Assembly (NCBI RefSeq): GCF_026125785.1
Contig: NZ_JAHCKL010000003.1
Span: forward strand, 248,001 to 312,000
Direction: 5' to 3'
Length of the DNA stretch: 64,000 nucleotides
From: Hydrogenophaga sp.
GTDB lineage: Bacteria > Pseudomonadota > Gammaproteobacteria > Burkholderiales > Burkholderiaceae_C
Under the pieces are notes generated by a model. That model had not been told where the DNA came from. It saw only the letters and a program-made list of their open reading frames with translations, and did no database searches. Below, one piece after another: positions 11,732-18,592 of this stretch. The translations under genes were made by a program, and so were the position numbers. How positions within the stretch are numbered: the stretch's first letter is position 1; each line of letters begins with the position of its first letter.

Positions 11732-12118
11732 ATGCCGTTCTCCCGCGTCACCCGCCGTATCGCTGCCTGGCTGGCCATGCTTGCCATGCTGGTGGGCACG
11801 CTGGCGCCCACCGTGGCGCAGGCGGTGGTGTCGGCACGGGACGATGGCTCGGGCTGGCTGCAGGTCTGCTCTGCCAGCGGCATGGTCTGGGTGCGCGCCG
11901 ATGGCGCGGCACCAGACAGCGCCGACGGCAAGTCCCTTGCCGATGCGCCGCGCCATTGTCCCTGGTGCAATCCGCACGGCGCCGCCGGCCTGCCGCCGGC
12001 GCCGCCGGCCCTGGTGCTGCTCTCGCCGCGCGATGCCGTGCCTGCGGTGCAGGTGGTTTCCGCCGACGTCCAGAGGGAATGGCCCGGCGCGCGTTCCCGG
12101 GCTCCGCCGCAGGCTTGA
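11732..12118 (+). CDS. DUF2946-type exported protein with CPWC motif
   Basis: A 128-aa protein with an N-terminal signal/anchor (AAWLAMLAMLVGTLAPTVAQA), a WLQVCSASGMVWV block and a CPWC motif followed by NPH, then a Pro/Ala-rich tail. This matches the DUF2946 family, which lacks a proven function but recurs beside copper and PepSY genes. The C-x2-C/H cluster could bind metal; this is inference. It is the first gene of the copper operon. A second, diverged copy lies at 13269-13703. Confidence 0.75.
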   Translation: MPFSRVTRRIAAWLAMLAMLVGTLAPTVAQAVVSARDDGSGWLQVCSASGMVWVRADGAAPDSADGKSLADAPRHCPWCNPHGAAGLPPAPPALVLLSPRDAVPAVQVVSADVQREWPGARSRAPPQA

Positions 12119-12224
12119 AGTCGTTCACCGCCGTGCTCCGGCCTGCGTGCCGGCGCGGCTTCCCAGCCCGGGCCTGATGGAGGCCCGCGTGCTACCCGAC
12201 CTCATTGCCTTGCAGGACAGCTCC

Positions 12225-12710
12225 ATGAAACAACTGCTTCTCTCTTCCCTGATCGCCTTCGCCGCCACCACCTCCTGGGCCCAGGCCTCCGTCGACGTCA
12301 AGGACCCCTGGGTGCGCGCCACCGTCGCGCAGCAAAAGGCCACTGGCGCCTTCATGCAGATCACATCGTCCTCCGATGTGCGGATCGTCGAGGCCCGCTC
12401 CCCCATTGCCGGCGTGGTGCAGATCCACGAGATGAGCATGGACGGTGGTGTGATGAAAATGCGCGAGGTCGCGGGCGGCCTGAGCCTGACCGCCGGCAAG
12501 CCGGTGGAGCTCAAGCCCGGCGGCTACCACGTGATGCTGATGGACCTCAAAGGGCAGGTGAAAGCCGGCGACGTGGTCCCGCTCACGCTGGTGCTCGAAG
12601 GCAAGGACGGCCAGCGCAGCACGCTGGACGTCAAGGCCACGGCGCGTGCACTGGGCGGCGGCGCGGCGCCTGCGGCCGGCGCGCAGGACCACGGCAAGCA
12701 CAAGCACTGA
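12225..12710 (+). CDS. Periplasmic copper chaperone PCuAC
   Basis: A 161-aa secreted Cu(I) chaperone of the PCuAC family, which hands copper to the CuA site of cytochrome oxidase subunit II. The signal peptide ends TTSWAQA. The copper motif H-x-M...H-x-M is present as HEMSMDGGVMKM and GGYHVMLMDL, and the C-terminus is His-rich (DHGKHKH), a second possible copper site. It precedes a second PCuAC gene by 4 bp. The oxidase operon that would receive the copper is 32 kb away in this window. Confidence 0.93.
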   Translation: MKQLLLSSLIAFAATTSWAQASVDVKDPWVRATVAQQKATGAFMQITSSSDVRIVEARSPIAGVVQIHEMSMDGGVMKMREVAGGLSLTAGKPVELKPGGYHVMLMDLKGQVKAGDVVPLTLVLEGKDGQRSTLDVKATARALGGGAAPAAGAQDHGKHKH

Positions 12711-15964: not shown

Positions 15965-17192
15965 GCGATGGCGCCTGTACCGCCATCTCGGTGTCGTCTG
16001 GACGCTGGCGCTGGCCGCCACGCTGGCCCACGCGCATGGCGAGGCCGACGATCCGTTGCCCGCAGAGCCGGGTACGGTGGCCGTCGAGGCCGCCGCTGCC
16101 TTGCGCCACCTGCGCGCGGAGCAGGTGCTGCCTTCGGCCCGGCTCGACGGTTTCCTGCTGCAAGGGGATACCGGTGATGACCCCAGCGGTTCGCGGCTGG
16201 AGCACGGCACGCTCGGTCTGTCCTGGCGCGCTACGCAGAACCTGGGGGGGCAATGGGTGGTGGGCAAACATGGCAATGAGTCCGCGCACGTGGAGGCGGC
16301 CTGGCTGCAGTGGCGGCACGACACCGATGAGGACAGCGCATGGTTGTTCAACCTGGGCCGTCAGACGCCGGCCATGGGTGGTGTGCTGGCGGGCGCCGGG
16401 CACCTGGACCGGTTCGGCCTGCGGCCGCTGGCCCAGCGCATGGCGCTGGACCACGACTGGATCGACGACGGCCTGCAGCTCGGCTGGCGTGGCAGGCCGC
16501 GCGGCGGCGAACTGGCGCTGGATGCGGGTGTCTGGCGCGGCAAGGCCTTTCCTGGCGCACGCGACGGCCGTCCGGTGCCCAGCCTGCACCTGGGTTGGCG
16601 CAGCGAAGCCTGGGCCCTCGATGGCATCTGGGCCCGCTTCCAGCCTTTGGGACGCGGCACGTCGATTGCGGGCGCCGCCGGCCACAGCCACACAGCACCC
16701 GTGTGCAACGCCGCCCTGGTGGAAGTGGCGTGCTTCACCGGCAGCACCGAGTTGACCGGCGGAAGTGTGCGCTGGAGCGGTCGGGAGGCTTCGCCGTCCT
16801 GGCCGTGGACCTTCACCGCCGCAGGCTGGCTGCGCCAGGACCGTGGTTCGCTGGAGTCCGCCAACGGGCTGGCCCGCTACGACGGGCGCAACCAGGGTGG
16901 CTGGCTAGAGGCCATCTGGCACGTGAACCCTCGCTGGGAGCTGGGTTGGCGCGGCGAAAGCCTGGGAGCCCATCATGCGCTCCAGGGACCTGGCGCTGCC
17001 ATGCTGGTGCGTGAGACACGCCTGGACCGCTACCGCAGCGCAACCCGCCACGCGCTCATGCTGGGCTACCGTCCGGTGGCCTGGGCCAGCCTGCACCTGG
17101 AGGCCGGCCGGGAATCGGTGGCCGGCACGCGCGCCGGCTTCATTGCCCTGCGGCTCGTGATGACCACCCAACACTTTCTGACCACGCCATGA
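15918..17192 (+). CDS. Unassigned outer-membrane barrel-like protein of the copper operon
   Basis: A 424-aa protein I cannot place in a named family. It has an export segment ending ATLAHAHG and then a long region of alternating polar/aromatic residues with many Trp-x-Trp and Gly-Trp pairs (LGLSWRATQNLGG, WLQWRHDTDEDSAWLF, LQLGWRGRPRGGELALDAGVW), the pattern of an outer-membrane beta-barrel. A short Cys-containing insertion (GHSHTAPVCNAALVEVACF) near residue 260 also has His. The only ATG giving this frame is at 15918, inside mbnH by 47 bp, leaving a long basic n-region; a non-ATG start nearer 15960 is possible. Its TGA overlaps the PepSY gene ATG. Probably a copper-related porin or receptor, by context only. 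Confidence 0.6.
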   Translation: MISSTTRSSQIRSGPERWRLYRHLGVVWTLALAATLAHAHGEADDPLPAEPGTVAVEAAAALRHLRAEQVLPSARLDGFLLQGDTGDDPSGSRLEHGTLGLSWRATQNLGGQWVVGKHGNESAHVEAAWLQWRHDTDEDSAWLFNLGRQTPAMGGVLAGAGHLDRFGLRPLAQRMALDHDWIDDGLQLGWRGRPRGGELALDAGVWRGKAFPGARDGRPVPSLHLGWRSEAWALDGIWARFQPLGRGTSIAGAAGHSHTAPVCNAALVEVACFTGSTELTGGSVRWSGREASPSWPWTFTAAGWLRQDRGSLESANGLARYDGRNQGGWLEAIWHVNPRWELGWRGESLGAHHALQGPGAAMLVRETRLDRYRSATRHALMLGYRPVAWASLHLEAGRESVAGTRAGFIALRLVMTTQHFLTTP

Positions 17193-18592
17193 ACACCCCT
17201 ATCCGACAGCCTCAGGCGCCCGCCGCCTCCCGTTTCCACGCCGTCGCCTGGCGCTGGCACTTCTATGCCGGCCTGTACGTCGTGCCGTTCCTGCTGATGC
17301 TGGCCCTCACCGGGCTGGTGATGGTGTTCTTCACCGGTTTCCAGACCCGGCTGGGGCCGGTGGTGACGGTGGCGGTGCCGGCGCAGGCCGCGCCGCTGCC
17401 GGTAAGCCAGCAGGCCGCGGCCGCGCTGGAACTGCGGTCGCAGGCCGCGCTGCTGGAGTACCAGGCGCCGGCGGCGCCGGACCGCGCGAGCTGGTTCGTG
17501 CTCGCGCGCGATGGCGTGACCGAGGCCATCGCGGTCGATCCCTACACCGCGCGCGTGCTCACACTGGTGGACAAGGACCAGACCTGGTTCGCCTGGGCCG
17601 AGAAGATCCATGGCACCTTGCTGCTGGGCGATCTGGGTGACCGCCTCATCGAGATCGCCGCGGGCTTCGGCATCGTCATGATCCTCACCGGCCTGTACCT
17701 CTGGTGGCCGCGCGGCGGTACGCGCTGGGCACAGGTGCTGTGGCCGGACTTGCGGCTGAAGGGCCGCCAGTGGTGGCGTTCGCTGCATGCCAGCGTGGGT
17801 TTCTGGCTCAGTCTGGTGCTGCTCCTGTTTCTGTTGACCGGCCTGTCCTGGACCGGCGTGTGGGGCGGCAAGCTGGTGCAGCCCTGGGGCAGCTTCCCGG
17901 CGGCCAAATGGGACGCGGTGCCCACCTCCGACGCCACCCATGCCAGCCTGCGCACCGGCGGACCGCTGCAGGTGCCCTGGGGGCTGGAGCAGACACCGCT
18001 GCCGGTCTCGGGTTCGATCGCCGGCACCGCCGGTCTGCCGGCCGGGCAACCGGTGAACCTGAACAGCGTGGCCGCGTTCGCGCGCCAGATCGGCTTTGCC
18101 GGGCAACACCATGTGATGCCACCCAAGGATGCGACCGGTGTCTACACCCTCACCGCCAACACCATGAGCGGCGACCTGGGCCGGCCCACGCAGGACCGCA
18201 CGGTGCACATCGACCAGTACAGCGGCCGCGTGCTGGCCGAGGTGAGCTACGCGGACTACCCCGCCATGGCCAAGGCCATGGCGGTGGGCATCGCGCTGCA
18301 CCAGGGCGACCTGGGGCTCTGGAACGCCGGCCTCAATGTGCTGCTGTGCCTGGCCATCGTGTTCCTGTGTGTCAGCGGCATCGTCATGTGGTGGAAGCGC
18401 CGGCCTGCGGGCCAATGGCGCCTGGCCGCGCCGCCGCTGCCGCGCGAGATGCCGCTGTGGAAGGGCGGGGCCGTGGTGATGTGCGTGGCCGCGCTCGCGT
18501 TCCCGCTCACCGGCGCCGTGCTGCTGGCGGTGCTGTTGCTCGATGGGCTGGTGGTGTCGCGGCTGCCCGCGCTCAGGTCCGCGCTGAACTGA
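17189..18592 (+). CDS. PepSY-associated transmembrane protein (PiuB-like)
   Basis: A 467-aa inner-membrane protein of the PepSY_TM family with an N-terminal helix (FYAGLYVVPFLLMLALTGLVMVFF), a periplasmic PepSY-type domain, a central pair of helices (IAAGFGIVMILTGLYLWWPRGG; WLSLVLLLFLLTGLSW) and C-terminal helices after GIVMWWKRRP. Relatives are linked to siderophore-iron or copper uptake, sometimes as reductases carrying haem between helix His residues. It is the last gene of the copper operon and overlaps the preceding gene by 4 bp and the convergent fbpC-like gene by 20 bp. Confidence 0.9.
   Translation: MNTPIRQPQAPAASRFHAVAWRWHFYAGLYVVPFLLMLALTGLVMVFFTGFQTRLGPVVTVAVPAQAAPLPVSQQAAAALELRSQAALLEYQAPAAPDRASWFVLARDGVTEAIAVDPYTARVLTLVDKDQTWFAWAEKIHGTLLLGDLGDRLIEIAAGFGIVMILTGLYLWWPRGGTRWAQVLWPDLRLKGRQWWRSLHASVGFWLSLVLLLFLLTGLSWTGVWGGKLVQPWGSFPAAKWDAVPTSDATHASLRTGGPLQVPWGLEQTPLPVSGSIAGTAGLPAGQPVNLNSVAAFARQIGFAGQHHVMPPKDATGVYTLTANTMSGDLGRPTQDRTVHIDQYSGRVLAEVSYADYPAMAKAMAVGIALHQGDLGLWNAGLNVLLCLAIVFLCVSGIVMWWKRRPAGQWRLAAPPLPREMPLWKGGAVVMCVAALAFPLTGAVLLAVLLLDGLVVSRLPALRSALN

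What the first reader, a model, noticed from the sequence alone, without database searches (positions are those of the whole stretch)
11732..18592. Copper operon pairing MbnP/MbnH with two PCuAC and two DUF2946 proteins, without methanobactin genes
Eight genes in one direction with overlaps or short gaps combine an MbnP-like lipoprotein and its MbnH-like dihaem partner with two PCuAC chaperones, two DUF2946-type proteins, an unassigned barrel and a PepSY membrane protein. MbnP/MbnH is known for Trp-to-kynurenine based copper binding in methanotrophs. Here there is no methanobactin synthesis locus in the window, so the pair may serve a different, self-contained copper capture route that feeds the aa3 oxidase.
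Basis: partly seen in the sequence, partly recalled or inferred. Interest (0 to 1): 0.78.

Follow-up and report, generated by a model that had tools for sequence, protein, structure and literature searches.

The report
Copper operon with two ribosome-stalling switches
A bacterial copper-handling operon is present as described, but its two "DUF2946 proteins" are most likely not copper chaperones: they look like self-stalling leader peptides that switch the genes behind them, and the one in front of the MbnP/MbnH pair belongs to a small group that has lost the usual copper-sensing cysteine pair.

Summary
The eight genes are there. The headline is not new: MbnP/MbnH outside methanobactin loci was reported in 2013, and DUF2946-headed operons with PCuAC, MbnPH and PepSY_TM in 2022. 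The genome's one MbnB-superfamily hit is a bufferin maturase. The re-reading concerns the two DUF2946-type genes: both end in RAPP, the arrest motif of the CruR leader peptide, and both precede the operon's only long gaps (106 and 114 bp), before PCuAC1 and mbnP. Three points go beyond the papers I could search. (1) Such leaders recur inside operons: 20 of 37 MbnP loci hold two or more in one same-strand run. (2) The mbnP leader belongs to a clade of six (support 0.985) whose CXXC became CxW[AV] while the arrest tail stayed; it sits in a PCuAC2-leader-MbnP-MbnH-barrel block that a same-genus genome lacks at the same site. (3) As a class, the arrest-site RNA is complementary to the next gene's ribosome-binding region: a test fixed beforehand on 84 further junctions gave 0 of 5000 re-pairings as strong, non-leader junctions no effect; the shift is modest and missing at sister mbnP junctions. 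This suggests a SecM/CutF-like switch on top of Rho. All is computational; copper delivery to aa3 oxidase is inference.

The parts
11732..12118 (+). Leader peptide 1 (CruR-type uORF, DUF2946): CPWC, 43 residues, RAPP (codons 12098-12109), 2 residues, stop
   Evidence: PF11162 65.5 bits; motif and spacing
12119..12224 (+). Long gap before PCuAC1; predicted helix between about 12109-12123 (arrest/stop region) and 12197-12213, abutting the AGGA before the PCuAC1 start
   Evidence: (duplex -23.9); whole-leader fold no more stable than shuffles (z -0.38)
12225..12710 (+). PCuAC1 copper chaperone
   Evidence: PF04314 128.1 bits
12715..13257 (+). PCuAC2 copper chaperone, first gene of the block absent from G114
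   Evidence: PF04314 97.3 bits
13269..13703 (+). Leader peptide 2 (DUF2946-like, CxW[AV] subclass): PCVWV in place of CXXC, tail RVLLMSAMRAPPSNVA (RAPP codons 13677-13688)
   Evidence: no library hit
13704..13817 (+). Long gap before mbnP; predicted helix between about 13688-13705 (end of leader 2) and 13794-13810, just before the mbnP start 13818
   Evidence: 13670-13817 folds better than shuffles (z -2.55); (duplex -21.5)
13818..14771 (+). MbnP, predicted lipoprotein
   Evidence: TIGR04052 239.7 bits; relative of 7l6g; H161, W189, W191, H215 kept in 37 of 37
14768..15964 (+). MbnH di-haem enzyme, two CXXCH
   Evidence: TIGR04039 507.7 bits; relative of 6e1c; CXXCH columns invariant in 11
15918..17192 (+). 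Porin-like outer-membrane barrel (start uncertain, may lie further in)
   Evidence: model mean pLDDT 83.2, Foldseek to OmpT/OmpF porins; found in 20 of 39 loci
17189..18592 (+). PepSY_TM membrane protein, possible copper reductase
   Evidence: PF03929 218 bits; function by analogy to CrpH (PMC13038864, passages)
12715..17188 (+). Block PCuAC2 - leader 2 - MbnP - MbnH - barrel that same-genus genome G114 lacks between PCuAC1 and PepSY_TM
   Evidence: same five-gene order in L048, L049, L052, L060

Best explanation
This is a CruR-type, copper-starvation-style copper supply operon. Two of its eight genes (11732-12118 and 13269-13703) are leader peptides that stall their own ribosome at RAPP; they are not copper carriers. 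Proposed working: when copper is short, ribosomes stall at RAPP of leader 1; the stalled ribosome keeps Rho off and covers RNA that could otherwise pair with the ribosome-binding region of PCuAC1, so that gene is made. Copper at the CXXC of leader 1 releases the stall, the helix closes and transcription ends. (Stalling, CXXC sensing and Rho termination are published for CruR of another bacterium; the complementarity is calculated here; the rest is inferred.) Leader 2 repeats this before mbnP inside a block PCuAC2-leader 2-MbnP-MbnH-barrel. Having lost CXXC, leader 2 is probably a copper-blind permissive gate, or it senses something else. MbnH would turn a conserved Trp of MbnP into kynurenine to complete a His/His/Kyn copper site; the barrel, PepSY_TM and PCuAC pair would pass, reduce and hand on copper to cuproenzymes such as the haem-copper oxidase (inferred from families).
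For: RAPP at both C-termini and the only long gaps behind them. In 39 loci 64 DUF2946-like ORFs, 62 with R[AGS]PP within 25 residues of the end and 57 with CXXC at the right distance. Median gap behind leaders 115.5 bp (n=62) against 21 (MbnP, 37), 11.5 (MbnH, 34), 63 (PCuAC, 53), 49 (barrel, 21). Two or more leaders per same-strand run in 20 of 37 loci. Exactly 3 residues follow the motif in 38 of 62 and 68 of 84 leaders. Arrest-site/RBS complementarity: first set 46 junctions, 2 of 5000 re-pairings as strong; test fixed beforehand, 84 junctions, 0 of 5000; GC-stratified 0 of 5000; deduplicated 121 junctions 0 of 5000; non-leader junctions null (169, 50). CxW[AV] clade of six, support 0.985. 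CruR mutants: RAPP loss switches off, CXXC loss keeps expression but blunts copper control (PMC9426467).
Against: No expression, stalling or copper data for this organism. Leader 2 has no library hit. The complementarity is a modest class shift (about 1.5 kcal/mol; 7% of 121 junctions beat 95% of re-pairings, 5% are weaker than 95%), and some shifted control positions also deviate, by up to -1.01 against -1.71. Three sister CxW[AV] mbnP junctions show none (L048, L052, L060; L049 and L182 were not scored). The leader 1 region folds no better than shuffles (z -0.38). C>G bias, a Rho mark, is also seen at MbnH ends. No sigma-70 consensus promoter found.
Confidence: 0.65

Rival explanations
1. 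Leader 2 is a relic. The MbnPH block brought its own CruR leader into an operon already gated by leader 1; copper sensing by leader 2 became redundant and its CXXC decayed, while RAPP is kept only because losing it would shut mbnP off.
For: Five of the six CxW[AV] leaders lie downstream of a CXXC leader on the same strand; published RAPP mutants are off, CXXC mutants stay on (PMC9426467).
Against: The Cys and Trp of CxW[AV] are kept in 6 of 6, more than decay would leave; the sixth member (L182) stands alone before a TonB receptor without a CXXC leader in the fetched stretch.
Confidence: 0.35
2. The complementarity is a by-product of C-rich Pro codons, G-rich ribosome-binding sites and local composition; control is by Rho alone.
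For: Rho termination is demonstrated for CruR (PMC9426467); the per-junction effect is modest and often absent; some shifted positions deviate too.
Against: GC-stratified re-pairing 0 of 5000; synonymous recoding weakens it (0 of 40 draws as strong); non-leader junctions of the same loci show nothing (3041 of 5000, 988 of 5000).
Confidence: 0.3
3. The DUF2946 proteins are exported copper carriers that work with PCuAC and MbnP.
For: Signal-peptide-like N-termini and cysteines.
Against: Arrest motif at a fixed distance from the stop codon and long following gaps; CruR is hardly translated and was not found by proteomics, and CutF is rapidly degraded (PMC9426467; PMC9973294, passages).
Confidence: 0.1
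4. MbnPH here serves uptake of a chalkophore made by the cell or a neighbour (methanobactin-like, or the genome's bufferin).
For: A bufferin maturase gene is in the genome; MbnPH sits in methanobactin operons elsewhere (PMC3621798, passages).
Against: No MbnB by the PF05114 search and no MbnC match; no copper TonB receptor over its cut-off in the genome; the bufferin gene is on another contig (C34 against C23).
Confidence: 0.07

Closest known systems
CruR leader and the cruR-crtA-crpH operon of Bordetella (PMC9426467, PMC12914433, PMC13038864)
   Same: DUF2946 leader with CXXC and RAPP, long gap, PepSY_TM gene; PcuAC and MbnPH-like genes named among partners of DUF2946 genes
   Different: Here two leaders in one run, the second inside the operon and without CXXC; no TonB receptor between leader 1 and PepSY_TM; predicted RBS helix (no mention of Shine-Dalgarno or RBS in PMC9426467 by term search)
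CutF leader of cutFOG, Rhodobacter (PMC9973294, passages)
   Same: DUF2946 family; stalling-like C-terminus; stem-loop hides the Shine-Dalgarno of the next gene
   Different: CutF uses CxxxC and copper turns the next gene on; RAPP leaders of the CruR kind turn off with copper
SecM, VemP, MifM arrest peptides (as told in PMC9973294)
   Same: C-terminal arrest opens an RNA structure before the downstream gene
   Different: They report protein export, not metal supply
MbnP/MbnH pair (PMC3621798; PDB 7l6g, 6e1c)
   Same: Both proteins over their NCBIfam cut-offs, adjacent genes, WxW and haem motifs
   Different: No methanobactin genes found; pair follows an arrest leader and precedes a porin-like barrel
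RAPP/RGPP leaders before metal genes (PMC12992588, passages)
   Same: RAPP-type leaders over-represented before TonB receptor, YcnI, PCu(A)C and PepSY genes; CruR arrest shown in vitro
   Different: Serial leaders, CXXC-less clade and RBS complementarity not met in the passages seen

Membership tests
CruR-type leader (gene 1, 11732-12118) | DUF2946 profile | tested here: met
   PF11162 65.5 bits, cut-off 23.7
CruR-type leader (gene 1, 11732-12118) | CXXC about 45 residues before a C-terminal RAPP | tested here: met
   CPWC, 43 residues, RAPP, 2 residues
CruR-type leader (gene 1, 11732-12118) | First gene, long gap behind it | tested here: met
   Divergent gene upstream, 106 bp gap
CruR-type leader (gene 1, 11732-12118) | Copper-released stall and Rho termination | not testable with these tools
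   Needs translation and expression assays
CruR-type leader (gene 4, 13269-13703) | DUF2946 profile | tested here: not met
   No hit in Pfam or NCBIfam; relative by iterated profile
CruR-type leader (gene 4, 13269-13703) | CXXC copper motif | tested here: not met
   PCVWV; clade CxW[AV]
CruR-type leader (gene 4, 13269-13703) | C-terminal RAPP and long gap | tested here: met
   RAPPSNVA, 114 bp to mbnP
CutF/SecM-type RNA switch | Helix hiding the ribosome-binding region of the next gene | tested here: inconclusive
   Predicted at both window junctions and significant as a class; absent at three sister mbnP junctions
MbnP | TIGR04052 / PF20243 over cut-off | tested here: met
   239.7 and 114.8 bits
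MbnP | Conserved His, Trp and Cys of the family | tested here: met
   H161, W189, W191, H215, C221, C234 in 37 of 37
MbnP | Trp converted to kynurenine, copper bound | not testable with these tools
   Needs mass spectrometry; the 2021 paper is recalled, not held
MbnH | TIGR04039 over cut-off, two CXXCH | tested here: met
   507.7 bits; CASCH and CFHCH
Methanobactin operon | mbnB with mbnA and mbnC | tested here: not met
   One PF05114 hit, a bufferin maturase; MbnC no match, weak null; mbnA not searched
CrpH (copper PepSY_TM) | PepSY_TM architecture in a CruR-headed operon | tested here: met
   PF03929 218 bits
CrpH (copper PepSY_TM) | CrpH sequence cluster and haem-binding His | not tested
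   No CrpH sequence was compared

The most novel reading that the evidence does not exclude
CruR-class leaders work as dual switches: the RNA that encodes the arrest site and stop codon is itself the arm that would close the next gene's ribosome-binding region, so stalling opens that gene directly as well as blocking Rho. They are used serially within one operon, as movable gene-plus-switch cassettes, and one lineage (CxW[AV], which includes the mbnP leader here) has become copper-blind or has changed its ligand.
Probability: 0.4. Interest if true: 0.75.

Novelty: new variant of a known kind. Interest (0 to 1): 0.6.

Why it matters
It turns two unexplained genes into a testable regulatory circuit for copper supply. 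If the arrest site doubles as an anti-RBS arm across CruR-type leaders, it would join CruR (Rho, copper turns off) and CutF (stem-loop, copper turns on) under one RNA mechanism. A leader that kept its arrest motif but lost its copper site is a natural separation-of-function variant, useful to learn how nascent chains gain or lose ligands, and could explain how MbnP/MbnH is expressed apart from methanobactin.

Tried and rejected
Methanobactin locus: not found (mbnA not searched). Copper TonB receptor in the own genome: three TIGR01778 matches, none over the cut-off. Another DUF2946 gene over cut-off in the genome: none (a 16.8-bit match with two stops). Promoters and intrinsic terminators: 0 and 3 sites, at chance level. 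Rho C>G bias: present at leader ends but also at MbnH ends, so not decisive. CxW[AV] subclass elsewhere in the order: 399 genomes gave nothing above 29 bits except the own genome. The first barrel search used a wrong frame and was redone. The first gene caller locked on antisense frames and was replaced.

Rows dropped: L071 and L072 (28-bit MbnP matches, no MbnP ORF) leave 37 of 39 loci for gene order. Of 64 leader ORFs 62 on the mbnP strand entered the gap count, 48 the folding test, 46 the duplex test. Of 103 leader ORFs in the second set 84 entered: 6 without motif, 2 without next gene, 11 outside the gap range. In one search MbnP starts were reassigned by a lipobox rule and the two window starts set by hand; the second set used caller starts only, as fixed. 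Control junctions of the second set were run later. The second set was picked by PF11162, which favours CXXC-bearing leaders, so '0 of 97 without CXXC' is biased. Two of its 100 stretches (L257, L316, genome G208) overlap L185, seen before.

Literature: PMC9426467, parts 1-4 of 7 plus term searches; PMC9973294, PMC12992588, PMC13038864, PMC12914433, PMC3621798, passages only; PMC3423442, PMC3912023 and others, search listing only. The 2021 PNAS paper on kynurenine in MbnP is recalled (not held). That RBS sequestration by CruR-type leaders is not in print rests on searches and look-ups, open-licence PMC papers only.
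Full report
What is there. The stretch 11732-18592 holds eight same-strand genes: DUF2946, PCuAC, PCuAC, a DUF2946-like gene, MbnP, MbnH, an outer-membrane barrel and PepSY_TM. The second DUF2946-like gene has no DUF2946 hit in the libraries and was placed by iterated profiles and alignment. The barrel, modelled from 19 sequences (mean pLDDT 83.2, pTM 0.81), resembles general porins by Foldseek (best OmpT of Vibrio, E 3.1e-12, then OmpF; 9-13% identity in the rows shown). 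The aa3 oxidase genes start about 26 kb downstream. The assembly is 93.84% complete in 46 contigs.

What is already known. MbnP/MbnH beyond methanobactin producers was described in 2013 (PMC3621798, passages). Roy et al. 2022 (PMC9426467, parts 1-4 of 7 read) showed that a DUF2946 protein, CruR, is a leader peptide: RAPP is needed for downstream expression and taken as an arrest motif, copper acts through CXXC, and Rho then ends transcription before the next gene; they name PcuAC, MbnPH-like and PepSY_TM genes in such operons. Arrest of CruR at RAPP was later shown in vitro (PMC12992588, passages). A PepSY_TM protein of a CruR operon supports haem-copper oxidases and is a suspected copper reductase (PMC13038864, passages).

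Re-reading of the DUF2946 genes. Gene 1 has CPWC, 43 residues, RAPP, two residues and the stop; gene 4 ends in RAPPSNVA and has PCVWV where CXXC should be. Both are followed by the operon's only long gaps, 106 and 114 bp. MbnP was sought in 399 genomes of the family: 39 match at E 0.001 (27 of 141 genera), 37 over the cut-off. Stretches around 38 other places plus the window make 39 loci, 37 with an MbnP ORF. They hold 64 DUF2946-like ORFs in 34 of 39 loci; 62 have R[AGS]PP within 25 residues of the end, and 57 have CXXC upstream of it, listed spacings being mostly 41-48 residues. The gap behind these ORFs has median 115.5 bp (n=62), against 21 for MbnP (37), 11.5 for MbnH (34), 49 for the barrel (21) and 63 for PCuAC (53). 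In 20 of 37 loci two or more lie in one same-strand run with gaps up to 350 bp; of 62, 43 have a same-strand neighbour upstream, 22 of them within 50 bp, start calls being approximate. The 2022 paper says 'systematically found in first positions'; internal promoters were not excluded here.

A CXXC-less subclass. Five leaders directly in front of mbnP (window, L048, L049, L052, L060) lack CXXC and share CxW[AV] and a tail RVLLM..MRAPP. The other two of the seven ORFs without a properly placed CXXC are L049:15778 (no motif) and L063 (QAPP). A profile of the five, run on the 399 genomes, returned them and one more strong hit (G248, 101.8 bits; the next is 38.8) about 290 bp before a TonB receptor, in a genome with no MbnP match. 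The six form one clade (support 0.985) beside three CXXC-bearing mbnP leaders (support of the nine 0.925). Codons vary where the motif residues stay; pairwise dN/dS is 0.22 to 0.89. None of the 97 motif-bearing leaders of the second set lacks CXXC, but that set was picked by PF11162 and is biased. In 399 genomes of the order nothing but the own genome exceeds 29 bits.

A block. Genome G114, same genus, has at the syntenic place only leader 1, PCuAC1 and PepSY_TM; the bases AGCACAAGCACTGAGGCCATG around the PCuAC1 stop are the same in both, the ATG opening PepSY_TM there and PCuAC2 here. The extra block in the window is PCuAC2, leader 2, MbnP, MbnH, barrel; the same order is seen in L048, L049, L052 and L060. 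Whether the window gained it or G114 lost it is not decided.

Arrest site and ribosome-binding region. Folding suggested pairing between the RAPP-to-stop region and the region before the next start at both window junctions. In one search, 23 of 48 junctions scored above 3 against 21% of shuffles. I then compared the duplex energy of the 30 nt from each Arg codon with the 28 nt before its own next gene and with those of other junctions. First set, 46 junctions: -15.35 against -13.55 kcal/mol, 2 of 5000 re-pairings as strong; 169 non-leader junctions: 3041 of 5000. The test was then written down, 100 stretches were fetched from genomes outside the first set, and it was repeated: 84 junctions, -15.54 against -13.92, 0 of 5000. 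GC-stratified: 0 of 5000. Shifted windows differed by -1.01 to +0.71, against -1.71 at the predicted place and -1.60 with the leader window 15 nt downstream. Synonymous recoding of the leader end weakens it (-14.96; 0 of 40 draws as strong); the Shine-Dalgarno core pairs with the leader end in 47 of 84 predicted folds, 24 of 84 after shuffling. Deduplicated, 121 junctions: -15.34 against -13.87, 0 of 5000; 50 non-leader junctions of the second set: 988 of 5000. Against it: a modest class shift (7% of junctions beat 95% of re-pairings, 5% are weaker than 95%), no effect at three sister mbnP junctions (L048, L052, L060; L049 and L182 not scored), and the leader 1 region is no more stable than shuffles.

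How it probably works. In copper shortage ribosomes stall at RAPP of leader 1, keeping Rho off and the PCuAC1 start open; with copper the stall is released. Leader 2 repeats this before mbnP. Published CXXC mutants keep expression but respond poorly to copper, while RAPP mutants lose expression, so a CXXC-less, RAPP-intact leader should be a permissive gate deaf to copper, or one that listens to something else. MbnP keeps H161, W189, W191 and H215 in 37 of 37, in line with a site of two histidines and one kynurenine as in MopE (abstract in the listing); the conversion is not shown. Passage through the barrel, reduction by PepSY_TM and hand-over by PCuAC to an oxidase are inferred from families.

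Verdict. Known: MbnPH without methanobactin, and a DUF2946-headed PCuAC/MbnPH/PepSY_TM operon. Apparently new, within the papers that could be searched: serial internal leaders, a CXXC-less clade mostly in front of mbnP, and statistical evidence that the arrest site is also an anti-RBS arm. All of it is computational.

Noticed in passing
window 1-645 (-) and 917-3049 (-): A TonB receptor fragment closest to PqqU (211 bits over 180 residues, cut at the window edge) lies beside a PQQ-dependent alcohol dehydrogenase (TIGR03075, 673.6 bits, over cut-off): possibly a PQQ uptake and use pair.
   Followed up: no
G000:C34:171871-175704 (L002): A bufferin-type cluster: BufA2-like peptide (below cut-off), BufB maturase (over cut-off), a partner-protein gene and a DoxX-like gene (last two by eye).
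   Followed up: partly
L182:8211-11397 (+): The sixth CxW[AV] leader precedes a TonB receptor that reaches no NCBIfam cut-off (haemin-type 121.9 bits, copper-type 90.3 bits), in a genome without an MbnP match.
   Followed up: partly
L305, L321, L322 (genus g25): DUF2946 leaders ending in HAPP instead of R[AGS]PP, CXXC kept: a variant arrest motif?
   Followed up: no
L112:1915-2373 (+): In an Oleiphilus MAG (Gammaproteobacteria) a DUF2946-like ORF with RAPP but no CXXC lies upstream of an MbnH match: possibly a separate loss.
   Followed up: no
window 15918-17192 (+) and 18 relatives: In the barrel family an Ala-His step at the likely signal cleavage site (A39, H40) is nearly invariant: the mature protein might start with a copper-binding His.
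   Followed up: no
L036, L047, L048, L185: Related operons carry Sco-like genes (51-53% identical to the window's 53554-54123 gene in L185 and L047) and Crp/Fnr-like genes (by eye) behind the leaders.
   Followed up: no
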